Assembly (NCBI GenBank): GCA_947311565.1
Contig: CAMZLH010000054.1
Coordinates: forward strand, 1 to 36,945
DNA from: an uncultured Nitratifractor sp.
Lineage (GTDB): Bacteria; Campylobacterota; Campylobacteria; Campylobacterales; Sulfurovaceae
Direction: 5' to 3'
Length of the DNA: 36,945 nt
Positions 7,863 to 22,306 of this stretch are shown here, in pieces. A program made the translations under genes and the position numbers. The number at the start of each line of letters is the position of its first letter. Position 1 is the first letter of the stretch. The notes under the pieces were generated by a model. The model was not told where the DNA came from and made no database searches. It saw only the letters and a list, made by a program, of their open reading frames with translations.

Positions 7863-9020
7863 TTAAAATCTCATAGATAATGATATTGATCCTTTTGCAA
7901 ATGATGGACCTTTTTTCTTTCTCCAGAAAAATCTAGTTGGAGTATAGTAGTTGGAGTACATTATTGTTAATCTTCTTTTTTTACTATCTTTCCAGCCAAA
8001 TGAGAAAGCATAATCTGGCTCTTGAGATGTCTGCTTATTAAGCTTAGAGTATAGATATACAGAACCCGAGGCATAAAACTTTTTATATATAAACCCTTTT
8101 AGTGAAAGTGTTAATTGGTCTTGTGATGTATGCAGATACCTTTTATACTGTACAGAGCCTAATAGTTTATATATTTTTTTACTTGCAGATAGAGATAGAT
8201 AAGCTTTTTTAGACTTAGGAGTATACTTTAAAGATCCTCTTAAACTAACATCTTTTATCTTAGTTTTATAAGATAAGTCCCAAGTACCTGAACTAAAATT
8301 AAATCTATTATATCCACTATCTGGGCTAAATTTATTATCAGAGTAGTTTGAATAGACTAAACTCCAAGTATCTTGATGCCAATCAGAATAACCAAACGTA
8401 TAAGAGAAATCTGGCTCATAATATTTATTGTGCACACTATTTAATGTTTTTGCAAATGTTGCTCCAATAAAAAAATATTTTATAGGAGAGATATTAAGAG
8501 TTAGCTTTGCTTGCTCTCTACCACTATCTTCACCTATAATATTCTCTAAAGATGTAGAGTAACCTAAAGAGTAGCTAAACCACTTACTTAATGGCTTAAA
8601 AAATCTCTTTTTCATCTCTTTATCTTTAACTAATTTATTAGACTTTTGCTTAGATTTTTTACTATTAGTACTATTAAAATTGTTAGAGTTAAGAACTTTT
8701 CTTCTAGATTGTTTCTCCACACTCTCTTTACGGCTCTCCATCTCACTATCTATCTCATTTTGCATAAATAGTGATAGCTCATCACTCATCTCTTCTAACT
8801 CTTTAATATTCGCTATATCTACAACTATATCCTCTCTTTTTTGAGTCAAATTTTTATCTAAGAGAATAGTTTTACTATTACTACTATTTTTATCACTACT
8901 TACATTTGAATCTGCTCTACTGTTATTATCTATCTCTTTAAATATTGAGGCTATTGATTTATCTATAATCCACTGGCTATTTAGTGCTTTTTTTGCTAAT
9001 TCCCTGCTTCTTTTTTGCAC
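7863..9020 (-). CDS. Outer-membrane beta-barrel domain, probably expressed as a frameshift fusion
   Basis: 385 residues counted from the only start-like codon, GTG at 9020. The first ~140 residues are Lys/Glu/Ser-rich and helical. The rest is a run of amphipathic beta-strands with many Tyr/Trp/Ser (YSLGYSTSLEN, YTFGYSDWHQDTWSLVYSNY, GTWDLSYKTKI) and ends in SISLSMRF, a C-terminal Phe typical of BAM-inserted barrels. Size and pattern recall YaiO-like barrels, but I am not certain of the family. An outer-membrane protein needs a signal peptide and this frame has none; there is no ATG or good ribosome-binding site. The frame stays open upstream to 9149 and overlaps the end of the DUF3131 gene, so a -1 shift at the A10 run would fuse them into about 1414 residues. 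Likely role: the export pore or anchor for the polysaccharide. Confidence 0.7.
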   Translation of the reverse strand: MQKRSRELAKKALNSQWIIDKSIASIFKEIDNNSRADSNVSSDKNSSNSKTILLDKNLTQKREDIVVDIANIKELEEMSDELSLFMQNEIDSEMESRKESVEKQSRRKVLNSNNFNSTNSKKSKQKSNKLVKDKEMKKRFFKPLSKWFSYSLGYSTSLENIIGEDSGREQAKLTLNISPIKYFFIGATFAKTLNSVHNKYYEPDFSYTFGYSDWHQDTWSLVYSNYSDNKFSPDSGYNRFNFSSGTWDLSYKTKIKDVSLRGSLKYTPKSKKAYLSLSASKKIYKLLGSVQYKRYLHTSQDQLTLSLKGFIYKKFYASGSVYLYSKLNKQTSQEPDYAFSFGWKDSKKRRLTIMYSNYYTPTRFFWRKKKGPSFAKGSISLSMRF

Positions 9021-9097
9021 TAACTCTTTTGCTAACTTTAGTGCCTTTAATCTCTTTTGGGCTAGCTTTTTCTCTTCTATAATCTTTTGTAATAGGG

Positions 9098-12000
9098 CTA
9101 TTTTTTTTTTATTTTTTGAGCATTGACAACTTTTTTTAAACTTAAATAGTCACTATATGCTTTATTTACTACACTATCTATGCTATTTTTATATGGTATG
9201 TGATAATTATAGTTATAGTGACCACTAGAGTATACAAATTTAGTAGAGTCTATAGCGCCCTCTTTTATCTCGAAAAACTCTGGAAATGACTCCTCTTTAC
9301 TCTCTAGAAAAAATATTAAATCTTTTTTACTATTAAAGCTACCACCCCTTACTACAAACTCTTTACCTACTCTCTCTAATCTTTTATATGGTAAATCTTT
9401 AGGCAACTTTTGCATTAACATTTGCGCTTTATGTCTTAACTCTATAGGTGTACTCTCTAAATAGAAACTGCTATTGGTATCGATTACATCTAGATGGACA
9501 CTACTTAATAGTGAGCTATGTTTACTATAGTAATAGTTACCAAATCGTTTATAGAATATAGACTCTAATACTGCGCTATTTGTAGATATATTAAGAGATC
9601 TATTTACTCTGTTGTTATGAGAGTAAACACCGCCATACCAACCTTCTTTACTGCTACAATTAGAGTCTACAACTTCTAAGAGTTTAGCACTATAACTATC
9701 TGTATATCCATATAGAGCATCATATATAAATGCTGCTTTTGTACTAATTAACTTACTCTTAGATACAGACTTCTTCTCTCTATTTAAATCACTCCATTTT
9801 TTACCATTATTATAGATTGTATTCTCTATAAAGTATGGCTTTTTATCTAATGCTTCACTTGTTGATGTCGAGATTTTATGATTAATCGTATATTGCCCTT
9901 TTAGACTTAAATATATATTTGATGAGTAGTGCTTATACTTAATATAGTATGGATGCTCTAACATACTCCAGAGATAGCTTTCACCATTAGTTATCTGATA
10001 CTTATGCCCCATTGGTACCTCATAGTTATTAACAGCTTTATAATCTAAATTTCTCTCATCATAAAGATAGCTATAAGATTTTATATTAAATAGATTTAGT
10101 GCATTAAAAATATAGTACTCTTTTGCTGGATCTTTTATATCTGTAAAACCACCTTTACTCTTTCCATCAAAATATCTATTTTGCATACTTTTTTCTAAAA
10201 CTGCTCTCTTAAAATCCCATTTTGATATAATATCAAATACACTCTCTCTATATTGTGGATATGACTCTTCTAGATGATATAATGCAGTCATAAGTTTTGC
10301 TATAGAGTATAGCTCCCAACCATTACCTGTTGGGCTATCTTTACCTGCACTTGTAACCATTTTACCTGTTAGAGCATTATAATATAGGTTTGGCAACTCA
10401 TTATGGTAAAGTTTCATACTACTTAAAGAGCTCAAAACTTTAGAGATCTTACCGTTAAACTCCTCTTCATCAATTATCTCTAATTTAAAAGCAGATATTG
10501 TAGAGATAATAGCTTTTCCTATATGTGCTGGTTTTATAATTTTATACTTGTTTAGTCCATTAACATAACCTGTCTCTTGATGATAGTTATTTTCAAAATA
10601 TCTCCAAGCTACCTTTGCATTCTCTATATCTTTTGTACTATTAAGCTCTCTTGTCATTAGTGTATCGAATGGCTCTAAAATTGTCATTTGATTATCTGTT
10701 GGCAGACACCTAAAGTTATTTACATTATTTCTATAGTAATCATATGCTCCTCTATTTTCTATCTTATGCAGACTCTGTAAAGAGCCCATTTTAGAGGACA
10801 ACATTGCCTCTAGTATAATAGAGTTAGTATTGAGAGTCATAGCCTTGTTCTGTCCTGGTCTTTTCTCGTAAATACCTGCATAGTAGCCCTTTTTTGGATC
10901 ATAATTATTTTTAACATAATTAAATACTTTATTAGAGTATGGTGTATCAAATAGATATCTCATACCAATTGCAGCTTTAGTACTTACTGTTTTATAGTTA
11001 TCGTAATCTTCACCTTTTTGGTTAATTGTTTTCCAAGCTTCTCCACCTGTATATACAGTATTAAATAAGAAGTATGGTCGAGTATCTATATTATCTTCAG
11101 TAACAGCTGTAAGTTGTCCTGTACGCTCATATCTTCTCTTTTGCACCTCATACATATTTTTAATATATCTACCTGACTCATTATCATCTACTCCATACTC
11201 AAAACCAAGATACCAAAATGGCTCACTCTCGATAAAGTTAGAGAAGAAGGGTCTTGTATCTGTTGGTATCTTCACACCATAAACATCTACCTCTTTTACA
11301 AACTTATATGAGCGCGCCTCACTTGCATTATGGTGCCAAAGTTCATAACCTCTAGCAAGATACTCTTCGTATCCTGTAAGTGCTTCATGTCTAATATGAA
11401 GTTTTCCATTCTCCATTGAACCACCATAGAGATCACCCTCTACACTTAATGCTCTACAGTATCTATATCTAAGTAATAGTTTTTCAATTTGTGGCGCTAA
11501 GGTCTCTTCGCACTGCTCCACCATATTTAGTGACGACAATAACCTTGCTAAGTCTGCAGCTGACCAACCTGTACCATCTTTTTGTACTTTATTAACATAG
11601 TCGGTCATTTTAGCTGAGTTAGTATTATATGTTTTATTTGGTAGTTCGTTATTAAATATTTCCATTTTTTGCATAGTTTTTAAGAAAGTGTTCATCATTT
11701 TCTCATACTTTTCTTGCGTAATAATATTAAACTTTCTAGCTGCATATATTGCATATACTGCATTTGCCCAATCCCAGGTAGCAGCAGATGGATACTTATG
11801 TGCTGCGGCTGTTAAACCTGTTTTTTTATTAAAGTTATTCTCTATATATTTCCATGCAATACGAGCCATCTTTATCTCCTCTTTTGTAGGAGCACACTTT
11901 AACTGACAAGGAGAAGTTAATGGTGTAGGGTATATACACTCACCTGGTTTTATACCAATATCGTTATATAGATCTAAAGAGTCATTACTATCTGTAACAG

Positions 12001-12106
12001 CTATATCTACTCTATTTTTACTATTTAAAGTATATACAATATAGGAGTTAAATAGTAGTATCAATAGTAAAATTACTGCAATAATTAATTTTATATTTTT
12101 TCTCAT
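9098..12106 (-). CDS. Membrane-anchored protein with two DUF3131 domains
   Basis: 1002 residues: an N-terminal signal or anchor helix (about 7-26), a short Cys-containing linker (C57, C67, C71), DUF3131 domain 1 (about 75-445), DUF3131 domain 2 (about 490-880), and a ~120-residue tail ending in a Lys-rich helix. DUF3131 proteins are found beside cellulose-synthase-like glycosyltransferases and are predicted helical, (alpha/alpha)-barrel-like glycan enzymes; the activity is not established. Domain 1 keeps the residues shared with the one-domain paralogue in this operon (W111-D112, GWSAAD with D185, LTAVTED with E337/D338), whereas domain 2 has lost them. The start is firm: AAGGAG six bases before the ATG. 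Its TAG follows directly after ten A, the proposed slippage site into the barrel frame. Confidence 0.82.
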   Translation of the reverse strand: MRKNIKLIIAVILLLILLFNSYIVYTLNSKNRVDIAVTDSNDSLDLYNDIGIKPGECIYPTPLTSPCQLKCAPTKEEIKMARIAWKYIENNFNKKTGLTAAAHKYPSAATWDWANAVYAIYAARKFNIITQEKYEKMMNTFLKTMQKMEIFNNELPNKTYNTNSAKMTDYVNKVQKDGTGWSAADLARLLSSLNMVEQCEETLAPQIEKLLLRYRYCRALSVEGDLYGGSMENGKLHIRHEALTGYEEYLARGYELWHHNASEARSYKFVKEVDVYGVKIPTDTRPFFSNFIESEPFWYLGFEYGVDDNESGRYIKNMYEVQKRRYERTGQLTAVTEDNIDTRPYFLFNTVYTGGEAWKTINQKGEDYDNYKTVSTKAAIGMRYLFDTPYSNKVFNYVKNNYDPKKGYYAGIYEKRPGQNKAMTLNTNSIILEAMLSSKMGSLQSLHKIENRGAYDYYRNNVNNFRCLPTDNQMTILEPFDTLMTRELNSTKDIENAKVAWRYFENNYHQETGYVNGLNKYKIIKPAHIGKAIISTISAFKLEIIDEEEFNGKISKVLSSLSSMKLYHNELPNLYYNALTGKMVTSAGKDSPTGNGWELYSIAKLMTALYHLEESYPQYRESVFDIISKWDFKRAVLEKSMQNRYFDGKSKGGFTDIKDPAKEYYIFNALNLFNIKSYSYLYDERNLDYKAVNNYEVPMGHKYQITNGESYLWSMLEHPYYIKYKHYSSNIYLSLKGQYTINHKISTSTSEALDKKPYFIENTIYNNGKKWSDLNREKKSVSKSKLISTKAAFIYDALYGYTDSYSAKLLEVVDSNCSSKEGWYGGVYSHNNRVNRSLNISTNSAVLESIFYKRFGNYYYSKHSSLLSSVHLDVIDTNSSFYLESTPIELRHKAQMLMQKLPKDLPYKRLERVGKEFVVRGGSFNSKKDLIFFLESKEESFPEFFEIKEGAIDSTKFVYSSGHYNYNYHIPYKNSIDSVVNKAYSDYLSLKKVVNAQKIKKK
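9101..9110 (-). other. A10 homopolymer: proposed -1 slippage site
   Basis: On the coding strand the DUF3131 frame ends AAA-ATA-AAA-AAA-AAA-TAG, with ten consecutive A before TAG. Slipping back one base reads ATA-GCC and enters the barrel frame, which is open to 7863. The junction then reads as one Lys/Leu-rich helix. Real slippage, a strain mutation or a homopolymer sequencing error could each explain it. Confidence 0.55.
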
Positions 12107-12147: not shown

Positions 12148-13698
12148 TTACTTCGATTTATCGGTAAATAAACTAATATTAGACATAATTTTACTATTTA
12201 TTTTTTTATAACTTGGTATTAAGTTACAACTAGTAGCACTAATTGGGTGCGAAGCACCTTTTATAAATATAGTTGTGATCTTATTTTTACTTTTAACTGT
12301 TTCTAAATCTAACTTTTTTAAATTATCAAATGTTACTAAAGTATCATCTATACTATGAATCGCTAATATTGGTATGTTAAAATTATCTAAGTGATCTATT
12401 GGCGAGTATTTATGTAACCATTCTAATCTCTTTTTGTCATCATTAACTCCAGACAACTTTATCTGCTTATTTTCTGGGTATAGAGTTAAGTCACTACTCA
12501 TGCTATTTAAGAGAACCAATTTAATACCCTTAGATATACTTTTATCCATTTTAGATATAGCCATAAATAGTAACTGTGCTCCTGCAGAATCACCCATAAC
12601 AACAGTTTTTTGTGAGTTAGCTCTATACTTAGATGCATTATTAATTAAATATTCAATTACCCTCTTAACATCATCTATCTGTTTAGATATATGCATATCT
12701 TTTGAACCTAATAGTCTATAGTTAACTACTGCTGCACTAAAGCCAATATCTGCATAATATTTGGCATAGCCTCTAAATTGAGACTTATCTCCACCACTCC
12801 AGCCTCCTCCATGAACATATATAAAGAGACTATTGTTGTTAGACTCCTTTTTATAGTATATATCAAACTTTTGCAGTTCACCCTCTGCATATGGCTGATC
12901 AAGCTCTTTAGAGAGCTTATTTGTAGGTCGATATAGTATCTTACCAAGATGTAGACGAATTTGTGGATAGTAACTACCTAATGTAGATTTGACTACTCTT
13001 TTACTCTGAAGATTAGATATTACAGATTTTAAATATCGATTAATCTCCAGCTCTATCTTCTGTTTATCTATAGCAAAATAGTAGTTGTAATTAAGTGAAA
13101 GGGGTAGAGATATTTTATCTATATCATCTCTTCTATCTTTATTGGATTTGGTATCAATATATAGAGTATTAGGAAAGTACCAGTCTCTTTGAATAGCAGG
13201 ATCAAGTGCATTAGATATCTCATATAGTGAAGTATCTAATTTTAACTCTTTGTAGTAGCCATCTATCGCATTACAATACTCTAAAACTCTTCTTTCTTTT
13301 CGACTTTTACTAAAGCAATTTTTATATATATTTAGAGGAGTATTCTCTAATATAAATGCCTCTACACTCTTTTGATAATCTCTACTAAGATTATGATAAG
13401 CAACAGCAGCTAAAGCAGCATTAATCCCCTTTGCATATATAATTAAATTTGGATACTCTTTACCCTCATCATTAGTTATTTTTTTAATACTATCTTGTAT
13501 AGTAAAAACTCTCTCTTCTATTGTGATCTTACTATTAAATGTTACTGTTGTGATATCTATATTTTTATCTATATCTACACCATTACAACTATTAACCTTA
13601 TAGTACTCACTATCTTCTATGCATAGCATTTTAGTAGTTGCAGAAAACAGTAAAATAGATGTAGATATAGCTACAGATACAACTCTAAAAAGATTCAA
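12148..13698 (-). CDS. Secreted alpha/beta-hydrolase esterase (HSL/BD-FAE-like)
   Basis: 516 residues with a signal peptide (about 1-25). The C-terminal half is a complete esterase of the hormone-sensitive-lipase type: oxyanion motif HGGGWSGGDKSQ, nucleophile elbow GDSAGAQL, Asp in HSIDDTLVTF, His in GASHPIS. The N-terminal half (about 45-210) seems hydrolase-like but degenerate: LIIYAKGINAALAAVAYHN looks like an elbow with Asn in place of Ser. The gene sits between the OpgC-like acyltransferase (11-base gap) and the DUF3131 gene (41-base gap). I infer that it removes ester substituents from the operon's polysaccharide; a peptide or lipid ester substrate is possible. The family is confident, the substrate is not. 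Confidence 0.8.
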   Translation of the reverse strand: MNLFRVVSVAISTSILLFSATTKMLCIEDSEYYKVNSCNGVDIDKNIDITTVTFNSKITIEERVFTIQDSIKKITNDEGKEYPNLIIYAKGINAALAAVAYHNLSRDYQKSVEAFILENTPLNIYKNCFSKSRKERRVLEYCNAIDGYYKELKLDTSLYEISNALDPAIQRDWYFPNTLYIDTKSNKDRRDDIDKISLPLSLNYNYYFAIDKQKIELEINRYLKSVISNLQSKRVVKSTLGSYYPQIRLHLGKILYRPTNKLSKELDQPYAEGELQKFDIYYKKESNNNSLFIYVHGGGWSGGDKSQFRGYAKYYADIGFSAAVVNYRLLGSKDMHISKQIDDVKRVIEYLINNASKYRANSQKTVVMGDSAGAQLLFMAISKMDKSISKGIKLVLLNSMSSDLTLYPENKQIKLSGVNDDKKRLEWLHKYSPIDHLDNFNIPILAIHSIDDTLVTFDNLKKLDLETVKSKNKITTIFIKGASHPISATSCNLIPSYKKINSKIMSNISLFTDKSK

Positions 13699-13709
13699 AT
13701 AACGATCTC

Positions 13710-14924
13710 CTATCTAGGTATTACATTATATAGAACTTTATTCTTAACCATAATCCACATAAATGCAAATACTAATGTATGGCCTAAAGTATTAATCCAA
13801 AAATTATCTTGATGGAAAATAGCAATATTTGCAATAACTATACATGCATAGACATGCAAAATAAATACATATAAAGATGCCTGACCTATCGGAATAAAAA
13901 ACCATCCAAACAACTTATTAATAGGTTTCCATAAATATGAGAGCATTGCATAAGAGACAATAAGTACGACAAAATCATTTATGAGTCTACCTATACCTAA
14001 TGTATTCTTTGGAAAAAACATATGGTAGTAGTGCCTAAATGTCTCAGGTGATATATAGTGTAATTTCAAATAATCTGGTATATCTTTTAATGGATTATTA
14101 TAGGTAAAAAATAGAAATAGAAAAAATAGTAACAGAATAAATGAGAAGACTATTCCACCTAATTTAGTATGAAAAAAGTTCCAAATTTCGTCTCTATAGT
14201 AGCCTATACTTAAACCGTGTATAAATAGTATTTGCCAAGTTAAAAGTGGAAAAGCATATTCAAATTGTGCTCCAGTAGGTCGAACATGAAATCCATTATT
14301 TGCAAAATATATAATCCAACTGAGTGCAAGTACTACCTTCACTTTATCTTTGCTAAGTAACCACAAAACAAATGGAGACAACATAAGTAAAAAAACATAT
14401 AGTCCTAGTATCTGAAACTGATGTGGTCCATACTGTAACATAAGATATTTAGCTATAATCTTATTGTAGTGTGTTGCAAATTGCTCCATATTTGGATATA
14501 AATTATAAACTTTACCACTATATGTAGTAAATGTCATAGCAGCATGTGCATCTATGTATGGTATTAAATCTATTAATAATACAGATAAAATAACAAATAA
14601 AGATGTGCGATATAGTAAGAAAGAGCGATTATACTGCTTATTAATTGTAGATGCCAAACCATCATGCGCCATGCGCATTCTAGATAACATTCCAAGTATT
14701 AATCCAGATAATAAAACAAAACCTTCTGCACCAGTTACAACACCAAATCTCTCCCAAGCTATATAGTCATATGCAGATATTATATCAATATGTACAGCTA
14801 TGAGTATTAGCATTACCATACCACGAATAAAATCTACTCTTAAATCTCTCTTTCCACCACCTTCTTGATAGTGCCACTGATTCATAAAATTTAACATTAT
14901 TGCAGCTTTAGGCTCTTTTTCCAT
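13710..14924 (-). CDS. OpgC-like membrane acyltransferase
   Basis: 404 residues, polytopic (about ten membrane helices), matching the OpgC family that transfers succinyl groups to periplasmic glucans in proteobacteria. Typical features are the N-terminal RDLRVDFIRG before TM1, the His in IAVHIDII, then AEGFVLLSGLILG and a run of hydrophobic helices to the C terminus. The acyl donor and acceptor are inferred from the family: an O-linked acyl group, probably succinyl, on the glycan made by the neighbouring synthase. It lies 14 bases after the one-domain DUF3131 gene and 11 bases before the esterase, so it is an operon member. Length is normal. Confidence 0.83.
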   Translation of the reverse strand: MEKEPKAAIMLNFMNQWHYQEGGGKRDLRVDFIRGMVMLILIAVHIDIISAYDYIAWERFGVVTGAEGFVLLSGLILGMLSRMRMAHDGLASTINKQYNRSFLLYRTSLFVILSVLLIDLIPYIDAHAAMTFTTYSGKVYNLYPNMEQFATHYNKIIAKYLMLQYGPHQFQILGLYVFLLMLSPFVLWLLSKDKVKVVLALSWIIYFANNGFHVRPTGAQFEYAFPLLTWQILFIHGLSIGYYRDEIWNFFHTKLGGIVFSFILLLFFLFLFFTYNNPLKDIPDYLKLHYISPETFRHYYHMFFPKNTLGIGRLINDFVVLIVSYAMLSYLWKPINKLFGWFFIPIGQASLYVFILHVYACIVIANIAIFHQDNFWINTLGHTLVFAFMWIMVKNKVLYNVIPR

Positions 14925-14938
14925 ACTTATATCCCCCT

Positions 14939-16252
14939 CTACTTACTAGGTATCATTTTAACTAATGGACCATGCTCTTTATACATAAGAGACTCTAATA
15001 TAATGGCATTTGTATTACAAGTTAAAGATTTATTAAGCTTTTCATCCTTTTCATATATACCTGTGTACCAACCTCTAGGACTCTTTAAGCTATTAACTTT
15101 TTTAATCAATTTCTTTGTGTACTCTGTATGATATAAAGCATCCATAGCAAATGAAGCTTTTGTACTTAGCTGCTTCATATCATTATGTACTTTACCATTA
15201 TCATCAATCGCTACCCACTCTTTTCTATTAACATATATACAGTTATAGATAAAGTATGGTGCTTTATCTAAGTGGTCTTCTGTTACTGCTGTAAGAGTGC
15301 CTGTCTCTTTATATCTTGCCTCTTGTGCCGCATATAGTCTATATGAGAACTCTTTAGAAAAGTAATCCCAACCAAACTCTAAACCATCTAACATATATGG
15401 TTCCATAAGAACATAGTTATTCGCAGTAGAGTGTTTTTTATCTCTTCTATCGTAAGGTATAGAGTAACCCTCTATATCTGTAAACTCTAAAAATTTATCA
15501 TATCTTAGAGCATTAGTAATATCAACCCCAAAACTAGCAAACATTTTAGAGGTGTACTGCTCGTAACCTAAACGACCCTCTTGTAGCAAAGACTCTTTAC
15601 CATTTTTAACTATAGCACCAAATAGAGCACCCTCTTTAGTCATATCTTTTATACTCCATCTTCTAAGAATAGAGTCTATTTTATTACTAAATTTAGGTTC
15701 ATTGTATTGTAAATAAGCTAAAGGAATTAACAATCTACCAATATCTATTGCCGACCAGCCGATACCTTTTTTTGTTGCTTTATTTTCGTAGTTGCTCATC
15801 TCTAATGTCTGAGTATTATATACCTTATTTGGAAGAGCACCTCTATATAATTTAATTTTAGAAAATGTATCTAAAATTTTGTTCATTCTATCTTCATAGA
15901 CATTTTCTTCTATAATATGAAGATTTTTTGCAGAAATTAGTGCCATCATATAGTTTCCACTATCCCAAAGTGTTGTAGATGGAAAGTTATCAACAGAGTT
16001 AACTAATCCAGTACTTTCTTGGTAGTTATTTTCAAAATAGCTCCATGCAACTTTAGCAGCATCGAGTTCTTCTTTATTAAGTTTTCTTACTGTTATATTT
16101 AGTTCTGGTGCTACTTTATCTTTAATTACAACCACTCCTAATCCTTGTCTTTTCATATCTATTCCATTTAAAAAATATATCACAACCGAACCAAAAATAA
16201 GTGCTAATAAAAAGACAATATGGTGTCTTGCTCTTTGTAAACTTTTATTCAT
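14939..16252 (-). CDS. Membrane-anchored one-domain DUF3131 protein
   Basis: 437 residues: one N-terminal anchor helix (about 11-29), a linker, then one DUF3131 domain (about 60-432). It aligns well with domain 1 of the larger paralogue: LWDSGN (D97), ALPNKVYNTQTLEMSNY, GWSAIDIGRLL (D170), GYEQY, LTAVTEDHLDKAPYF (E325, D326), STKASFAMDALY, GWYTGIYEK and CNTNAIILESLM. The repeated Asp/Glu residues and aromatic positions suggest a glycan-binding or glycan-cleaving periplasmic enzyme, but no activity is established for the family as far as I know. It starts 3 bases after the glycosyltransferase stop, which suggests that it works with the synthase. Confidence 0.83.
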   Translation of the reverse strand: MNKSLQRARHHIVFLLALIFGSVVIYFLNGIDMKRQGLGVVVIKDKVAPELNITVRKLNKEELDAAKVAWSYFENNYQESTGLVNSVDNFPSTTLWDSGNYMMALISAKNLHIIEENVYEDRMNKILDTFSKIKLYRGALPNKVYNTQTLEMSNYENKATKKGIGWSAIDIGRLLIPLAYLQYNEPKFSNKIDSILRRWSIKDMTKEGALFGAIVKNGKESLLQEGRLGYEQYTSKMFASFGVDITNALRYDKFLEFTDIEGYSIPYDRRDKKHSTANNYVLMEPYMLDGLEFGWDYFSKEFSYRLYAAQEARYKETGTLTAVTEDHLDKAPYFIYNCIYVNRKEWVAIDDNGKVHNDMKQLSTKASFAMDALYHTEYTKKLIKKVNSLKSPRGWYTGIYEKDEKLNKSLTCNTNAIILESLMYKEHGPLVKMIPSK

Positions 16253-16255
16253 CTA

Positions 16256-18010
16256 TTATCCTTCAAATTTATATAGGGCTGCTTGTACAATAGCCCAAAG
16301 TGATGTAATGTTAAAAAATGACCACATTAAATTAACTACATATCCTGCTAAATATACTCTATCGCCTATAATATATAGAGTTGCCGAGTATACTATTGCA
16401 ACTAAATAGAGTGCTATAATTGCCAACTGTATGCGAACTAATGGTAAAAAATTACCAGATTTAGCAGTTTTAGCAGTAACTACAAACCGTATAGGTTTGC
16501 GTCTTGCAACATCCCAAAAAGCTCTTAATACTATAGGAAATATTGCAATAAAAAATTGACCACCTCTGTTGGAGTTAATACCCCATGTTGCTATCATTAA
16601 AGCTAGTTGATTAAAAAATAAAAATGGTATTAAGTGTATAAAAAAATCCATTGAATAGCTTTGCACTGGTGCAATATTTGTAAACATATAGATAATTGGA
16701 GATGCTAAAAGAATCATAAGCCAAATTGCACCTGTATATGACCAAAATGTACTAAAATACATCAATTTTTGCCCAAGAGAGAGTCCAGATTTAAAGAACT
16801 GACCAAACTCTTTTGTAACTAAATCTATAGTACCGCCCGCATATCTAAACCTCTGTGCACTCCAAGTAATTAGATCTAAAGGAGATAACATTTTAGACTC
16901 AACATCTGGGTGTAGTACAGATTTATACTTCTTTTGCTTATGTGCATGTACAAGCAAAGATGTATAGATATCTTCAGAGGTATGGTAAGAGATATACTCT
17001 ACATCTATCTTCTCAATAGCACTCTTTTTATCTTTTGCTTCGATAACCCTATTTGCCCATCTAGTTATAGCAACACGACGCAGTGCGCTTGCTCTATGAA
17101 TAGATGTAGCACCACAACAAAAAGATGCATTGTAGTTATTTCTTCTTCTTTGTATTACATCAAAAAAAACGGCAGGGTCATTTGCAAATACATCTTCACC
17201 TACTTTTATTTTTCCCATTACCTTTTGTGTTGCTCTAGCTATATATTTACCAACAACTCCATATCTACGACTCCAATGATTATCTAAGCTCTCACCGGTA
17301 GTCAAGTCACAAAACCACTGAGGTGTTTGTACCCAAGCAACAGCATCATCTTTAAAGTAGCCTAGTGTATTTAGCAATATATTAGGGAATAGTCTAGTAT
17401 CAGAGTCTATTATAACAATAAAATCACCTAGTGTTTGATCCATGGCATATGTAATTGCACCAGCTTTTCTACCTTTGGTACTATCTCTTAAAATTTGAGG
17501 TACTCCCTCCTCTTGTGCCATTTTTGTCATATCATCACTATTACTATCATCAAGTAGATATAAGTTTACACTCCAAGTGGGTAACTTTTTAACTGATTTT
17601 GCCGCCTTTATTGTCTCTCTTACTAAAGATGGATCTTCATTAAATACAGGTATATAGATATCTATCTTAAGAGGATTATCTTTATACTCTGATTTTAGAC
17701 TCTTCTCTACAATTTCATCTTTTGTTGTAGGTGGAGTCTTCTTAGGTGTATCGTTAGTTTTCCAAAAATTGATAACTACTAAGATAGTACCTATAAACAT
17801 CATACTTTCAGCAAATGCTAGTGGTATTGCAAACCACAAGGCATCTGTATTTAAGGACTCTGTCCATCTATATTTTAGATACCAAATACCTAGCATCAAA
17901 GCAATAACTGCAAAAAACTGAAATAGCAGTTGCATCACTATTGATTGCTTCTGTGGTGGCTCTGGTACTCTCTTATCAAACCTATCTTCTAAAAAATAGA
18001 GTTCATCCAT
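16256..18010 (-). CDS. Processive family 2 glycosyltransferase (BcsA/MdoH-like)
   Basis: 584 residues with two N-terminal membrane helices (about 25-47 and 59-82), a cytoplasmic GT-A domain and several C-terminal membrane helices (about 415-445, 455-478, 485-500, 525-580). Catalytic motifs are present: DD (154-155), DSD (202-204, metal binding), QTPQWF, TSED (344-347, general base) and QRFRY (386-390, where most synthases have QxxRW). FVVTAK at 509-514 matches the BcsA gating-loop pattern FxVTxK. The protein ends at the last membrane helix, so there is no PilZ domain and no direct c-di-GMP switch. It should polymerise a nucleotide-activated hexose and push the chain across the inner membrane. 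The product is probably a beta-glucan, given MdoH/OpgC likeness, but linkage is unknown. Confidence 0.86.
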   Translation of the reverse strand: MDELYFLEDRFDKRVPEPPQKQSIVMQLLFQFFAVIALMLGIWYLKYRWTESLNTDALWFAIPLAFAESMMFIGTILVVINFWKTNDTPKKTPPTTKDEIVEKSLKSEYKDNPLKIDIYIPVFNEDPSLVRETIKAAKSVKKLPTWSVNLYLLDDSNSDDMTKMAQEEGVPQILRDSTKGRKAGAITYAMDQTLGDFIVIIDSDTRLFPNILLNTLGYFKDDAVAWVQTPQWFCDLTTGESLDNHWSRRYGVVGKYIARATQKVMGKIKVGEDVFANDPAVFFDVIQRRRNNYNASFCCGATSIHRASALRRVAITRWANRVIEAKDKKSAIEKIDVEYISYHTSEDIYTSLLVHAHKQKKYKSVLHPDVESKMLSPLDLITWSAQRFRYAGGTIDLVTKEFGQFFKSGLSLGQKLMYFSTFWSYTGAIWLMILLASPIIYMFTNIAPVQSYSMDFFIHLIPFLFFNQLALMIATWGINSNRGGQFFIAIFPIVLRAFWDVARRKPIRFVVTAKTAKSGNFLPLVRIQLAIIALYLVAIVYSATLYIIGDRVYLAGYVVNLMWSFFNITSLWAIVQAALYKFEG

Positions 18011-20157
18011 TATCTCTCCTTTTCAAACTTATAACTATTATTAGCAATATCTACACTCTTTTTTTTCAAATATAGATCTAGACTCTCTATACTATTTTGA
18101 TTAAGTGTAGCTACTTTAACTACACTATCGGCTGGTATCGAAATATCAAACTCCTCTTTAAATGTATGCTCTCCACTCTTATATCTAGCAACTACTTTCG
18201 CACCATTAAGTGCTTGAAGCTTATCATTAACTACATATATCTCTACCTCTCCACCCTCTATTTGCTTAGCAACTACTATAACTGGTGCATAGCTACTCTT
18301 TAGTGCGTTATATCCAGCTTTAGGTACTCTATAGTAATCTACAATACCCCAATTCATAGATGGCCAACCTTCGTTAAACATAAATTGGAAAATTCCCGTT
18401 GTATGGCTATATTTTTGCACTCTTAGCATCTCTACTGTAAACTTAATTAAAGAGGCTTGATACTCTTGAGACTCTTTTATAAACTCTTTTATATCACCTC
18501 TGTATTCGATTCCATTTTTACTATTCCAATTGAACTGAAAGTTATGATACTCCCACTCTTTTTTAGCCTTTTTACCTTTTGGTTTTAGATATTTTTTAGG
18601 TAGTATTCTCTTTAGGCTATCATAGTCTGGCAAAGCTTGCGCACCATATTCGCTAACAACTGCTACTTTAGAGTCTTTAGCAAAATCATGATAATCTCCA
18701 CTATACCACCCAAACCATGGATGTTCAAGCGAAGATGATATCTTCTTAATCATATGATAACTATCATAATTAGATATAGTTGTATAGAGCTTATCATCTA
18801 ACTCTACATTCTCTTTACCACTATAATCTCTATATTTCCACTTCATCCACTCAGAGTTCCAAGGTGGCTCATTATGCATAGACCATATAAATATTGAAGC
18901 ATGGTTATATAGTTTATCTACCATATCTTTGGCCTCTTTAATAGCTAAACTATGCATCTCTTTATTATCTATATATCCCCATTGTAAATTATAATCTTGC
19001 CAAACTAAAAAGCCCATCTCATCACATAACTCATAAAATCTCTTAGGCTCAATATGCGCATGTACTCTAATAGTATTTATATGCGCATCTCGCATAAGCT
19101 CTAAATCTTTTCTTAGCTTAGCAATACTCATCTCACTCATATATTGACTAGAGATATAGTTAGTACCCTTTATATATAGAGATTTCCCATTTAAAATAAA
19201 TCTTTTATTACTATCTTGAACCATAGATTTAAGTCCAATATTTTGACTATATATAGTATTATCAATTTTTATCTTAAGTGTATATAAATTAGCATCTCCT
19301 CTATCATGTGTACTCCATAGCTTTGAATTAGGTAAATTTATCTCTAAATGATGCACTCCAAAGGCGTTAAAATTAAACTTTTTAGAGTAAGAGTCTCCTT
19401 TAAAATTATATGGAACAACTTCTATCTCTATATTTTTAGGAACACTACTCATGGCATCACTATAGATAAACGATTTTTTACTACTGCTATATAGTTTTGT
19501 AATATTAAAATCTATCGATAGAGAGACATTACTATTATCTAAAATTTTTGGTGTAATTTTAAGATTATCTAGCTTTATACTATTAAGACTCTCTATAGAG
19601 ATATGGTTCCATATTCCACCAGAGTTTCTATCTTGACCCTTAGCAGACCATGCTCCACCAGCTCTTGTATCGTGGTGAGAAAATATGCCACGAAGTAGAG
19701 TCTTGTGTAGACTATAGTGCTCTGGATAGTTCTCTAATGGTGAGTTTACTCTAACTTCTATTTTGTTTATTCCTTTAACAAGATATGGTGTGATATCAAA
19801 TTTAAACTCTTGAAAATAACCACTATGAGAACCAACATAGTTACTATTTACCCATATATCACACTGGTAATCTACGCCTTCAAAATTAATAAAATGGTGC
19901 TTAGCTCTAGGTAGAAGCTTACTATTAAAACTCTTCTCAAACCAGACAATACCTGCATGGTTTAGACCCTCTTTATACCAGTTGTTTGGTAGCTGCATGC
20001 TGCTCTCTTTGCCGCTAAATATATATCTATAATCTAGTGTATGAGGCAAGTGCTCAACATGGTAGAGCCATTTGCCATCTAAAGATACTTTTTTAGGGAA
20101 AGTATCTGAAAATAGTATGCTATATAGGGCAAAGAATAGTACTAAAAACTTTTTCAT
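18010..20157 (-). CDS. Secreted glycoside hydrolase family 2
   Basis: 715 residues with a signal peptide (KKFLVLFFALYSILFSDT). The GH2 layout is complete: an N-terminal jelly-roll sugar-binding domain (about 25-195; GIVWFEKSF, CDIWVNSNYVGSHSGYF), an Ig-like domain (about 196-315), and a TIM barrel (about 318-600) with acid/base Glu430 in SMHNEPPW and nucleophile Glu503 in VVSEYGAQ. A further C-terminal domain follows. Known GH2 activities include beta-galactosidase, beta-glucuronidase and beta-mannosidase; I cannot choose among them. In this operon it probably trims or edits the exported polymer in the periplasm. Its ATG overlaps the preceding stop (TAATG) by one base, and its own stop overlaps the glycosyltransferase start. 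Confidence 0.87.
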   Translation of the reverse strand: MKKFLVLFFALYSILFSDTFPKKVSLDGKWLYHVEHLPHTLDYRYIFSGKESSMQLPNNWYKEGLNHAGIVWFEKSFNSKLLPRAKHHFINFEGVDYQCDIWVNSNYVGSHSGYFQEFKFDITPYLVKGINKIEVRVNSPLENYPEHYSLHKTLLRGIFSHHDTRAGGAWSAKGQDRNSGGIWNHISIESLNSIKLDNLKITPKILDNSNVSLSIDFNITKLYSSSKKSFIYSDAMSSVPKNIEIEVVPYNFKGDSYSKKFNFNAFGVHHLEINLPNSKLWSTHDRGDANLYTLKIKIDNTIYSQNIGLKSMVQDSNKRFILNGKSLYIKGTNYISSQYMSEMSIAKLRKDLELMRDAHINTIRVHAHIEPKRFYELCDEMGFLVWQDYNLQWGYIDNKEMHSLAIKEAKDMVDKLYNHASIFIWSMHNEPPWNSEWMKWKYRDYSGKENVELDDKLYTTISNYDSYHMIKKISSSLEHPWFGWYSGDYHDFAKDSKVAVVSEYGAQALPDYDSLKRILPKKYLKPKGKKAKKEWEYHNFQFNWNSKNGIEYRGDIKEFIKESQEYQASLIKFTVEMLRVQKYSHTTGIFQFMFNEGWPSMNWGIVDYYRVPKAGYNALKSSYAPVIVVAKQIEGGEVEIYVVNDKLQALNGAKVVARYKSGEHTFKEEFDISIPADSVVKVATLNQNSIESLDLYLKKKSVDIANNSYKFEKER

Positions 20158-21335
20158 TATCTATTTATGGTCATCTCGCCAATATTTTTAATCATCTCCA
20201 TAATATCTTTTTGCTCTTGGCTCATTACTGTTTCATCTTTTCTAGCATCATCAACTAAGAAGTTCATATCTGACTCCTCAATATCTATTGAGCTTCCAAA
20301 TGGATTAATAATATATTTTCCTGCAATAATCTTCTCTTTAATCTTTGCATGTGCAGTTACTTTTGTGTATCCTAATATGACACTTTTATCAATTGTAACA
20401 CCCTCTTTTATAACAGATCCAGAACCAATCATTGTAGGACCAATAATTTTCGCACCCTTCTCTATGCGAACACTACTTCCAATATATACAGGACCCTCAA
20501 ATGTTACTTCATCTAAATCTATATCACAGTTAATTCCCATCCATAAATCTTTTTTAACCTCTTTTCCATAAGGCACTAAATCATTCACCTCTTTATTTAC
20601 CAGCATTGTATTAGCTACATAGAAATCTTTAGTAGATCCTACATCTACCCATTGAAATTTTGGTGCTGTTGCAAAAAATGGTAAACCCTTCTCTACTAAA
20701 AGTGGTAGTAATTCTCCACCAATATCAAATTCACCCTCATTTGGAATATAGTCAAAGACTTCTGGATTAAAGATATAGATACCTGTATTAATTATATTAC
20801 TCTTAGCCTCTTCTACTTTTGGTTTCTCTTGAAACGATAATACTCTCTTATCATCATCTGTAACAACAACTCCATATTTATATACTTCATCTTTTGGTAC
20901 CTCTTTACAAATAACTGTAGCGACTGCACCCTTTTCTTTATGATAATTCATAGCTTCAGTTAAATCTATATCTATTAATGCATCACCACAAATAACTAAA
21001 AATGGTTCATCAAAAAAGTTTGAATAATCTTGCACTTTCTTTAAACCTCCAGCAGAGCCTAATCCAACTGGTACGATCTCTCCCTCTTCTAGTTTTCCCT
21101 CTAAAGAGTAAGCAATTTGCATACCATAATCTGCACCATTTTTATAGTGATCTTCTATTGTATTTGCCATATACCCTACTGTAACAATTACTTCATTAAA
21201 ATCATGTTTTTTTAGTAGATCTAAGAGATAGCTCATTATTGGTCTCTCTGCAATTGGTACCATTGGCTTTGGTAGCATATAAGTTAGTGGTCTAACTCTT
21301 GTTCCTTTTCCTCCAGCTAAAATAACTGCTTTCAT
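20157..21335 (-). CDS. Sugar-1-phosphate nucleotidyltransferase with hexapeptide repeats
   Basis: 392 residues. The N-terminal nucleotidyltransferase domain (1-235) has the signature AGGKGTRVRPLTYMLPKPM, VICGDALIDID (metal-binding Asp), EKPKVEE, NTGIYIF and WVDVGSTKDF. The C-terminal part (about 250-350) is a left-handed beta-helix of hexapeptide repeats (VYIGSSVRIEKGAKIIGP, MIGSGSVIKEGVTI). It converts a hexose 1-phosphate and an NTP into an NDP-sugar. The layout fits mannose-1-phosphate guanylyltransferase or glucose-1-phosphate nucleotidyltransferase families; the base and sugar cannot be fixed from motifs. It starts inside the end of the kinase gene (4-bp overlap), and supplies the donor for the synthase two genes downstream. 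Confidence 0.87.
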   Translation of the reverse strand: MKAVILAGGKGTRVRPLTYMLPKPMVPIAERPIMSYLLDLLKKHDFNEVIVTVGYMANTIEDHYKNGADYGMQIAYSLEGKLEEGEIVPVGLGSAGGLKKVQDYSNFFDEPFLVICGDALIDIDLTEAMNYHKEKGAVATVICKEVPKDEVYKYGVVVTDDDKRVLSFQEKPKVEEAKSNIINTGIYIFNPEVFDYIPNEGEFDIGGELLPLLVEKGLPFFATAPKFQWVDVGSTKDFYVANTMLVNKEVNDLVPYGKEVKKDLWMGINCDIDLDEVTFEGPVYIGSSVRIEKGAKIIGPTMIGSGSVIKEGVTIDKSVILGYTKVTAHAKIKEKIIAGKYIINPFGSSIDIEESDMNFLVDDARKDETVMSQEQKDIMEMIKNIGEMTINR

Positions 21336-21727
21336 TCTTTATCCTTTTTAAATATAAATACTATTTTACTTTTTTCAGTATATATCGTATCACTTAATAA
21401 TACTGCAAGCTTTAAACCACGACCATTTTCTGCTAGATAATCCATATTTTTTGCCTCATCTTTTGTAGGTAAAACAATTTCAACACTACCCTCGTCAACA
21501 ATTGTAAACTCTATTAAATCAGCACTCTCTTTGAGTGTTACATATACTTGCTTACTCTTATCAAGAGAGTTAGCATGAACAATAGAGTTAGTAACTAACT
21601 CTTGATTTATTAGTAGTATATTATTGTGTAATTTAAGACTAATATCTTTTGGTAAATTACGTTTTAGCCACTCTTGTAAATTTACCAACTCACTTAATTG
21701 GCTATCTAGCTGTATAGATTGCAACAT
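21332..21727 (-). CDS. RsbW-like anti-sigma-type serine kinase (HATPase)
   Basis: 131 residues forming a single GHKL ATPase domain of the RsbW/SpoIIAB type: N box INQELVTNSIVHAN (about 45-58), VDEGSVEI, and glycine box NGRGLKLAVLLSD. It has no histidine-kinase phosphoacceptor domain. In known partner switches such a kinase phosphorylates a STAS antagonist on Ser and binds an alternative target when the antagonist is phosphorylated. The partner STAS gene is immediately upstream (12-base gap) and the PP2C phosphatase gene is divergent. No sigma factor gene is nearby, so its output is unknown; it may act on the polysaccharide enzymes rather than on transcription. The 4-bp overlap with the nucleotidyltransferase ties it to that operon. 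Confidence 0.82.
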   Translation of the reverse strand: MLQSIQLDSQLSELVNLQEWLKRNLPKDISLKLHNNILLINQELVTNSIVHANSLDKSKQVYVTLKESADLIEFTIVDEGSVEIVLPTKDEAKNMDYLAENGRGLKLAVLLSDTIYTEKSKIVFIFKKDKE

Positions 21728-21739
21728 ATTAAAGCTATT

Positions 21740-22060
21740 TTAGTTATCGCAATTATCTACTATTGTAAATACATTATTTAGCTGTGTTATCTGCATCAAC
21801 TCTGTTGGTTGTTCATTTAAACCACACAATTTCAAATCTGAGTTTTCAACATTATTTAAATGTTTCAAGATTGTAATCAATACACTTAAACCAGAACTAT
21901 CTAAAAAATTAATATTAGATAGATCTAAAATAATCTTATCCTTACCCTCTATCAGTTTCATCACTTTATCTTTCGTCTCTTGCATTACAGATACATCTAA
22001 TCTCTCATACCATATTTTAATAACTAAATACTCACCACTATCATTTACATCAATTTGCAT
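21740..22060 (-). CDS. STAS-domain anti-anti-sigma-type protein (RsbV/SpoIIAA-like)
   Basis: 106 residues, one STAS domain. LDLSNINFLDSSGLSVLI (about 45-62) holds the conserved DSSG; Ser56 matches the serine phosphorylated by SpoIIAB/RsbW-type kinases. As first gene of the operon it would report the phosphorylation state set by the kinase downstream and the PP2C phosphatase encoded divergently. The frame extends upstream to 22132, but I chose the ATG at 22060 because AAGGAG lies six bases before it and the STAS fold begins at once (MQIDVNDSGEYLVIKI). An AT-rich -10-like sequence overlaps the longer version. Confidence 0.86.
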   Translation of the reverse strand: MQIDVNDSGEYLVIKIWYERLDVSVMQETKDKVMKLIEGKDKIILDLSNINFLDSSGLSVLITILKHLNNVENSDLKLCGLNEQPTELMQITQLNNVFTIVDNCDN

Positions 22061-22079
22061 TTTATTCTCCTTAATATTT

Positions 22080-22095
22080 GCTATAATATATACTG
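22080..22095 (-). promoter_or_regulatory. Candidate -10 region for the polysaccharide operon
   Basis: On the minus strand GCAGTATATTATAG supplies TATATT/TATTAT-like -10 sequences about 25-30 bases before the STAS start codon. No clear -35 box is visible. It is the only gap in the region suitable for a promoter, since the ten genes downstream are separated by at most about 41 bases or overlap. Confidence 0.35.
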
Positions 22096-22240
22096 CTATA
22101 TTTTTTACATAAATTAGACAGTTATATGGCATTATTATAACCTCTTAAACCTTATTAGTAACTTTGATATCATAAAATGGTAATAAAATATTTTATAAAA
22201 GTTAAAATTTAGTTTCAATTATGTTATATTAATGTTTTTT

Positions 22241-22267
22241 TTGATACTATATTAAATAGAATATAGT
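22241..22267 (+). promoter_or_regulatory. Candidate promoter of the response regulator-phosphatase gene
   Basis: TTGATA at 22241-22246 and TATAGT at 22262-22267, 15 bases apart, lie about 40 bases before the start codon. The spacing is short for a sigma-70 promoter, so this is tentative. Confidence 0.3.
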
Positions 22268-22306
22268 AGAGTTAATAAGCAATAAAAAATTTAAATAAGA
22301 GGTAAA

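What the first reader, a model, noticed from the sequence alone, without database searches (positions are those of the whole stretch)
9098..12106. Second DUF3131 domain has lost the conserved acidic residues
Domain 1 of the large protein and the separate one-domain protein share W-D (D112/D97), GWSAxD (D185/D170) and TAVTED (E337-D338/E325-D326). At the equivalent places domain 2 has H528, S601 and STSTSE, while the structural motifs (LPNxxYN, GW, PYF, STKA, GWYxG, TNSxxLE) remain. This suggests one active and one binding or scaffold domain, and marks candidate catalytic residues of a family without an assigned activity.
Basis: partly seen in the sequence, partly recalled or inferred. Interest (0 to 1): 0.5.

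Follow-up and report, generated by a model that had tools for sequence, protein, structure and literature searches.

The report
Dead enzyme domain, frameshifted outer-membrane tail
A bacterial polysaccharide-gene cluster encodes a protein with one sugar-chain-cutting domain that looks intact and a second that has lost key residues, and the gene seems to continue, by a conserved reading-frame slip, into an outer-membrane barrel, which makes the function of a widespread unnamed protein family testable.

Summary
D112, D185 and E337-D338 of domain 1 face H528, S601 and S750-E751 in domain 2. DUF3131 folds like the beta-1,2-glucanase clan; GH189 (8wy1) is the top match (Z 35.6 for D1, 35.0 for D2). 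D185/D170 aligns with the Asp found essential in EeSGL1 (D149). E337/E325 probably aligns with the GH189 nucleophile E1442. D112/D97 is probably not catalytic. The single-domain clade keeps the named acids in 79 of 80 rows. Twelve Sulfurovum-type domain-2 rows lost most of them, but a more distant tandem (G040) keeps acids at all positions: the loss is derived and stepwise. Domain 2 keeps its fold and has invariant residues of its own, so it is probably a non-catalytic glycan-handling domain. The larger discovery: the tandem ORF overlaps an outer-membrane-type barrel ORF in the -1 frame at an A-run. All 11 readable split loci show the -1 frame with an in-phase A AAA AAN heptamer; two loci are fused in one frame. 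Best reading: frameshifting or transcriptional slippage makes an inner-membrane-anchored enzyme-scaffold-barrel protein for a BcsA-like exopolysaccharide system. No expression or activity data exist.

The parts
9098..12106 (-). Tandem DUF3131 protein, 1002 aa; N-terminal hydrophobic anchor (aa about 6-27), D1, D2, possible SPOR-like tail
   Evidence: SPOR-like only from a sub-cutoff hit in a relative (L030, E 0.025, 15.3 vs 21 bits)
10760..11899 (-). DUF3131 domain 1 (aa 70-449): full acid set D112, D185, E241, E247, E295, E337, D338
   Evidence: AlphaFold pLDDT 96.0; best PDB match 8wy1 Z 35.6
9515..10639 (-). DUF3131 domain 2 (aa 490-864): H528, S601, I657, E663, E709, S750, E751
   Evidence: pLDDT 93.5; best PDB match 8wy1 Z 35.0
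9101..9110 (-). A10 run (T10 on + strand) with in-phase A AAA AAA heptamers; proposed -1 frameshift / transcriptional slippage site, just before the TAG stop (9098-9100) of the tandem ORF
7863..9149 (-). Barrel reading frame (stop-to-stop 7866-9149 plus stop): outer-membrane-type beta-barrel, -1 frame relative to the tandem ORF, overlaps it by 49 nt, no hydrophobic signal-like N-terminus
14939..16252 (-). Single-domain DUF3131 protein S with N-terminal anchor: D97, D170, E225, E231, E284, E325, D326
16256..18010 (-). GT2 synthase, closest NCBIfam model is cellulose synthase CelA (127.8 bits, far below its cut-off of 699)
   Evidence: homologue in 79 of 80 loci
13710..14924 (-). OpgC-type membrane acyltransferase
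   Evidence: PF10129 E 2.3e-49
12148..13698 (-). alpha/beta hydrolase (BD-FAE), possible deacylase
   Evidence: PF20434 E 4.8e-27
18010..20157 (-). GH2-family glycoside hydrolase
   Evidence: PF02837, PF02836, PF22666 and PF00703 over their cut-offs
20157..21335 (-). sugar-1-phosphate nucleotidyltransferase
   Evidence: PF00483 E 7.3e-56
21332..22132 (-). HATPase_c_2 (21332-21727) and STAS (21740-22132): anti-sigma / antagonist type pair

Best explanation
[quoted passage not shown] S and domain 1 are probably glycan-cleaving or transglycosylating enzymes acting in the periplasm on the polymer made by the neighbouring BcsA-like synthase, with E325/E337 as nucleophile, D170/D185 as a second essential acid and E231/E247 (or E225/E241) as general acid. 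Domain 2 of the Sulfurovum-type tandem is a derived pseudoenzyme: it keeps the fold, lost catalytic positions stepwise and has its own conserved residues, so it most likely binds or guides the glycan. In part of the molecules the ribosome or RNA polymerase slips by one base at the A-run and translation runs on into an outer-membrane barrel. This yields an inner-membrane-anchored enzyme + scaffold + outer-membrane barrel in one chain, beside a shorter barrel-less form. Shown by computation: fold, residue losses, ORF arrangement. Inferred: activity, slippage, export role.
For: Fold: D1 vs 8wy1 (GH189) Z 35.6, rmsd 2.8, 349 aligned; D2 Z 35.0, rmsd 2.7, 344 aligned; other SGL-clan entries 25-34; next folds about 22 and lower. 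Sequence: S vs 8wy1 phmmer E 9.7e-4, profile 3.4e-5, over about 95 N-terminal residues only; profile-profile E 5.2e-9 with, 8.6e-10 without the variable insert. D170 falls on TiCGS D1127 in 5 of 5 hhalign settings, in line with EeSGL1 D149, whose mutant fell under 0.1% activity (PMC12102758 passages). E325 on E1442 in 2 of 5 settings; its 27-residue ungapped window ranks 1 of 353 and 2 of 426. TiCGS numbering fits four published residues at one offset (PMC10834661 passages). Conservation. Cluster: of 80 loci, GT2 homologue in 79, STAS 67, nucleotidyltransferase 52, a barrel ORF of its own 44. Frame switch: 11 of 11 readable split loci are -1 with an in-phase A AAA AAN heptamer in the overlap; 2 fused in frame; in G040 the overlap is 10 nt, almost only the A-run; L026 (fused) and L028 (split) differ at the run by one A. 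Control: in 966 kb of the 1.69-Mb own genome this is the only -1 switch among 180 A>=8 runs (one +1 switch at an A8; 30 runs lie inside intact ORFs); in 14 related loci all 7 switches are this junction and 13 runs lie inside intact ORFs. Split barrel ORFs lack a hydrophobic stretch near the start in 8 of 9 (12-residue maximum 1.22 or less); other loci's barrels have a median of 2.09, n 34.
Against: No activity, substrate, expression or peptide data. The C-terminal half of the DUF3131-GH189 alignment is not significant alone (E 0.51). Of the five hhalign settings two nearly equal ones pair E325 with E1442, one covers only the N-terminal part, and two global ones put E325 on a Lys and E284 on E1356. 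A shorter E325 window ranks only 6 of 362 and 6 of 435, the rows used were chosen to have E325, and the E284-E1400 window scores badly. General acid: ambiguous. Seven of 12 D2 rows keep the E325 acid and the G040 D2 keeps all. RNA downstream of the slip site is unremarkable in 5 of 10 tested loci including the window (z 0.58), and strong only in L024 (z -2.85). One split barrel (L019) does have a moderately hydrophobic start (1.74), and three barrels of other loci score under 1.5. The 11 loci share ancestry, so they are not 11 independent trials. Many genomes are draft MAGs.
Confidence: 0.6

Rival explanations
1. The frame switch is not programmed: it is a phase-variable A tract (slipped-strand mispairing at replication) that turns the barrel fusion on and off between cells.
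For: L026 (A11, fused) and L028/L027 (A10, split) are close relatives that differ by one A at the run; surface proteins are typical phase-variable products (PMC3711429 passages).
Against: All 11 split loci are in the -1 frame and none in the +1 frame; L024 has only A6 followed by G, an A AAA AAG heptamer, with a stem-loop 3 nt downstream, a poor replication-slippage tract.
Confidence: 0.2
2. The split is a sequencing or assembly error, and the true gene is one uninterrupted fusion everywhere.
For: Homopolymer runs are error-prone; two loci are fused; one MAG (L032) is frame-broken in neighbouring genes too and was left out.
Against: The same -1 relation in 11 loci, the named ones from at least five record series by their titles, while 30 A>=8 runs elsewhere in the own genome lie inside intact ORFs; L024 has no long run.
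Confidence: 0.1
3. Domain 2 is still an enzyme with another catalytic set (for example E663, E709, E751).
For: Acids at S columns 231, 284 and 326 are kept in 12/12 D2 rows (11 Glu + 1 Asp, 12 Glu, 12 Glu); SGL-clan families use different bases (PMC12102758).
Against: Loss of the D149-equivalent in 11/12 and of E225 in 12/12, also of W96, R173, Y230, D268, R270 and E401 (0/12 each); what replaces D170 and E325 varies (Ser, His, Pro, Asn; Ser, Tyr, His).
Confidence: 0.15
4. Domain 2 is merely decaying under relaxed selection with no role.
For: Long branch (1.11) and 53% retention of 48 core columns; G040 keeps the acids, so loss is derived and stepwise.
Against: Confident intact fold (pLDDT 93.5, Z 35.0); residues invariant in D2 but different from the core family (G268, Y296, T322).
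Confidence: 0.08

Closest known systems
[quoted passage not shown] PMC10834661 passages)
   Same: (alpha/alpha)6 fold, top structural match of both domains; D1127 and probably E1442 have counterparts in S and D1
   Different: 12-13% identity over the structural alignment; stand-alone or tandem domains; HH1536-1537 would be N-T; no long helical insert
GH144/GH192/GH193/GH194 beta-1,2-glucanases (clan GH-S; PMC12102758)
   Same: Same fold; acid at the EeSGL1 D149 position
   Different: Inverting; their candidate bases lie elsewhere than the TiCGS nucleophile; the clan-marker Phe (XcSGL F286) was not found at the expected place, on a weak alignment
Klebsiella pneumoniae accessory block 3b (PMC12974863, one passage)
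   Same: Cellulose-synthase-like gene, three DUF3131 proteins, OpgC, anti-sigma regulators: same kind of cluster
   Different: No function assigned in the passage seen; no barrel fusion or frameshift mentioned in it
Synthase-dependent exopolysaccharide secretion (Bcs, Pga; recalled)
   Same: Inner-membrane GT2, periplasmic hydrolase, outer-membrane barrel joined to a periplasmic scaffold
   Different: The scaffold would be an SGL-fold pseudoenzyme instead of TPR repeats, anchored at both membranes through a frameshift
dnaX-type programmed -1 frameshifting / transcriptional slippage (PMC3711429 passages)
   Same: A AAA AAG, A AAA AAA and long A runs
   Different: Here it would extend an exported protein by an outer-membrane domain; not found in the searches made

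Membership tests
Pfam PF11329 (DUF3131) | Score above the gathering cut-off | tested here: met
   633.3 and 461.2 bits vs 20.3; the two tandem domains separately 392 and 255 bits
SGL clan fold (GH144/162/189/192-194) | (alpha/alpha)6 barrel of this clan | tested here: met
   Z 25-36 to clan members against about 22 for the next fold
SGL clan | Conserved Glu (XcSGL E239 / TiCGS E1356) | tested here: inconclusive
   E231 or E225 could be the equivalent
SGL clan | Conserved Phe and Tyr (XcSGL F286, Y367) | tested here: inconclusive
   The residue before E284 is Met in S and Ser in D1, not Phe, if E284 = E1400; that alignment is weak; Y367 not mapped
GH189 | Nucleophile Glu at TiCGS E1442 | tested here: inconclusive
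   E325/E337 aligned in 2 of 5 settings and in one best-ranked window; S750 in window D2
GH189 | Cyclization/transglycosylation of beta-1,2-glucan | not testable with these tools
   needs purified protein
Programmed -1 frameshift or slippage gene | In-phase slippery heptamer inside the ORF overlap, conserved frame relation | tested here: met
   11 of 11 readable split loci
Programmed -1 ribosomal frameshift | Downstream stimulatory RNA structure | tested here: inconclusive
   Of 10 loci: z -2.85 in L024, -1.4 to -2.0 in four, -0.05 to 1.19 in five incl. the window; L205 not folded
Programmed frameshift gene | Both protein products observed | not testable with these tools
   no proteomics
Outer-membrane beta-barrel | Known barrel family or structure match | tested here: inconclusive
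   No Pfam family over cut-off in 7 proteins; one hits PLA1 below cut-off (E 5.5e-4); no convincing PDB match (best E 0.088); two repeats of aromatic-rich alternating strands, many aromatic C-termini

The most novel reading that the evidence does not exclude
A frameshift- or slippage-made trans-envelope polysaccharide conduit: one chain carries an inner-membrane anchor, an active SGL-type glycan-processing domain, a neofunctionalised dead SGL domain that holds the polymer, and an outer-membrane barrel, while the unshifted product is a barrel-less partner; the ratio is set by an A-run kept in the -1 frame across Sulfurovum-type genomes and at least one other family of the order, with the slip device in one lineage changed from an A run to A AAA AAG plus stem-loop.
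Probability: 0.35. Interest if true: 0.85.

Novelty: new variant of a known kind. Interest (0 to 1): 0.62.

Why it matters
DUF3131 occurs beside cellulose-synthase-like genes in many bacteria (Vibrio, Shewanella, Campylobacterota here; Klebsiella in print) and has no assigned activity in the passages seen of the three papers found; placing it on the GH189/SGL fold names residues and substrates to test first. A conserved reading-frame slip that adds an outer-membrane barrel to a periplasmic enzyme-pseudoenzyme would be an unusual way to build or tune a polysaccharide export machine, and the same gene offers natural in-frame comparisons (L026, L030).

Tried and rejected
Sequence-only proof of the full DUF3131-GH189 alignment: the N-terminal part is strong, the C-terminal part alone is not (E 0.51). 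General acid: in 16 alignment settings the free optimum put E1356 on E231 in 8, on neither Glu in the other 8, on E225 in none; forced, E231 beat E225 in 14 of 16; left open. Groove test with coordinates: no model files to read. Frame errors as cause: tested with the A-run control. Barrel export on its own: judged by a hydrophobicity measure only, not a signal-peptide program. Pfam and PDB searches for the barrel: nothing usable. PF10091 in 16 genomes gave one hit. Rows left out before counts: 7 of 223 DUF3131 hits before the tree (five identical to kept rows over the compared columns, among them the L028 D2, and two short pieces of L035 and L032), so 12 of 13 D2 rows of the named loci and window are counted; the G040 D2 is not among them. 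Junction count: L032 (= G541, frame-broken MAG), L025 and L203 (contig ends), L208, L209, L121 (fragments or weak hits) left out; L201, L202, L204, L206 and L115-L119 were taken as the same loci as L019, L021, L023, L024, L026, L028, L027, L030, L087 by ORF lengths. L100 and L111 left out of the GH189 profile (L100 translated wrongly); L111 used again. L032 and L059 left out of the 34 comparison barrels, and the two fused ones. Foldseek/VIA lists do not exclude other families.

Papers: PMC12102758 (abstract, sections 2.1 and 3.3, passages; one sentence there gives D148N to EeSGL1 and D149N to PgSGL3, two others the reverse, which I follow); PMC10834661, PMC3711429, PMC8371737, PMC6382750, PMC12974863: passages only; the rest: search listings. 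Absence claims rest on the searches.

[quoted passage not shown] the window's own S protein inside scripts; stretches of 8wy1 and EeSGL1 copied into. Joined inside scripts: N- and C-terminal parts of ten or eleven cyclic glucan synthase-type domains with the variable insert left out, for profile comparison only (used again in 79 and 83; one search stopped before joining). Fetched from unnamed sources: G-handle genomes and stretches of the window's own genome; genomes behind named loci were searched too.
Full report
Observation. The two DUF3131 domains of the 1002-aa protein and the single-domain protein S align over their full length. Named positions, S/D1/D2: D97/D112/H528, D170/D185/S601, E325/E337/S750, D326/D338/E751. 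D338 is exchanged for Glu, not lost.

Family conservation. From 80 named loci (the best 80 of 298) I took 223 domain hits, the window's three included, and built a tree of 216 rows. Residues at S columns 97, 170, 225, 231, 284, 325, 326: S clade DDEEEED in 79 of 80 (one EDEEEES); D1 clade DDEEEED in 12 of 13, one row truncated at the first two; second-gene clade of Vibrio-like clusters DDEEEEH in 43 of 43; a mostly third-gene clade of 42 lost D97 in 42 and E284 in 42, kept D170 in 37 (Glu in 5) and E325 in 28 (Asp in 12, Ser in 2). D2 clade, 12 distinct rows: D97 1, D170 1, E225 0, E231 11 (Asp in 1), E284 12, E325 7, and Glu at D326 in 12. The D2 of G040, from another family of the order and not in the tree, reads D, D, E, E, E, E, E in the alignment. 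So an altered DUF3131 partner seems to have arisen at least twice, and D2 lost its acids stepwise. Over 48 core columns D2 keeps 53%, and 37% of the ten acidic ones; other columns lost in 12/12 (W96, R173, Y230, D268, R270, E401) suggest that the whole cleft changed while fold residues stayed. D2 groups with a fourth DUF3131 clade (support 0.985) but on a long branch (1.11), so this placement is uncertain.

Fold and chemistry. AlphaFold models: D1 pLDDT 96.0, D2 93.5. Both match 8wy1, the GH189 domain of TiCGS, best (Z 35.6 and 35.0), then other SGL-clan enzymes (25-34), with the next folds near 22. Ten cyclic glucan synthases show the published spacing of E1356, E1400, E1442, H1536 (+44, +86, +180; one has +88 and +182), and 8wy1 fits all four with one offset, which puts the Asp of VDSGN at 1127. 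EeSGL1 has an Asp there at chain index 150, read as published D149 with a one-residue offset (the offset is my assumption); its Asn mutant fell under 0.1% activity (PMC12102758). hhalign puts D170 on D1127 and D97 on N1063 in 5 of 5 settings. E325 goes on E1442 in two nearly equal settings, is not covered in one, and goes on Lys in two global ones; its long window ranks 1 of 353 and 2 of 426, a shorter one 6 of 362 and 6 of 435. The acid is E231 or E225; in the D1 model E247 lies in the first turn of a helix and E241 five residues before the helix, which favours E231 if E1356 starts a helix (inference). Hence S and D1 look like complete enzymes, perhaps retaining like GH189, and the window's D2 lacks the nucleophile and the D149-equivalent. 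Substrate is open: the synthase resembles BcsA more than OpgH (127.8 vs 23.7 bits), so beta-1,2-glucan is only the first candidate.

Surroundings. Of 80 loci, many cut short, 79 hold a homologue of the GT2 (all but L025, which starts inside the cluster), 67 STAS, 52 nucleotidyltransferase, 44 a barrel ORF of its own, 28 GH2, 18 OpgC (phmmer E <= 1e-5). A passage on Klebsiella block 3b lists the same kind of genes. DUF3131 is named in three papers of the library, none with a function for it in the passages seen. The barrel is rare in the window's own group: matches in 15 of 175 family genomes and 8 of 397 phylum genomes, some weak or partial.

Frame switch. The barrel ORF next to the tandem has no signal-like start; it opens inside the tandem ORF (49 nt overlap) in the -1 frame, at A10. 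Split loci: window, L019, L021, L022, L023, L024, L027, L028, L087, G040, G503: 11 of 11 are -1, with an in-phase A AAA AAN heptamer in the overlap; A runs of 9-11 in ten, A6 plus G in L024. L026 and L030 are fused in one frame; at the run L026 has A11 where L028, nearly identical around it, has A10; L030 has an in-frame A10. Control: in 59 pieces (966 kb) of the own genome, 180 A>=8 runs: 30 inside intact ORFs, one -1 switch (this one), one +1 switch, the rest at ORF ends or starts or outside; in 14 related loci 7 of 7 switches are this junction and 13 runs lie inside intact ORFs. In L024 a strong stem-loop starts 3 nt after the heptamer (z -2.85); five of ten loci including the window show nothing. 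This would fit slippage by RNA polymerase at long runs and ribosomal frameshifting in L024, as reported for dnaX in different species (PMC3711429, passages). Shared ancestry of the loci limits the statistics.

Verdict. My odds: SGL fold for DUF3131 0.97; S and D1 active 0.8; window D2 non-catalytic 0.85; barrel fusion made in cells 0.75; role in polymer export 0.6.

Noticed in passing
window 7863-9149 with 9098-12106: Tandem DUF3131 and barrel ORFs overlap in the -1 frame at an A10 run; same relation in all 11 readable split loci (became part of the finding).
   Followed up: yes
window 21332-23464: STAS, HATPase_c_2 and a divergent response-regulator ORF (22307-23464 +) that by eye ends in a PP2C-like domain: looks like a partner-switch control of the cluster, next to a hybrid-kinase-like ORF (23601-26480).
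   Followed up: no
window 2030-5371: Two adjacent ORFs (577 and 535 aa) look by eye like halves of one RND pump, beside HlyD- and TolC-like ORFs; a naturally split pump or a broken gene.
   Followed up: no
L037, L041 and other Vibrio/Shewanella loci, third DUF3131 gene: This clade (42 rows) keeps D97 in 0, E284 in 0 and N413 in 1, but D170 in 37: a second, separate altered DUF3131 lineage.
   Followed up: partly
L042, L062, L066, L072, L085 (678-774 aa ORFs): A fourth DUF3131 gene carries about 300 or more N-terminal residues before the domain; no Pfam match there in the four scanned.
   Followed up: partly
L098 11274-15848: Acaryochloris ORF of 1525 aa with three DUF3131 domains fused, the third again altered.
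   Followed up: no
L121: G030 holds a second, short stretch of the barrel gene (105-aa frame) on another contig.
   Followed up: no
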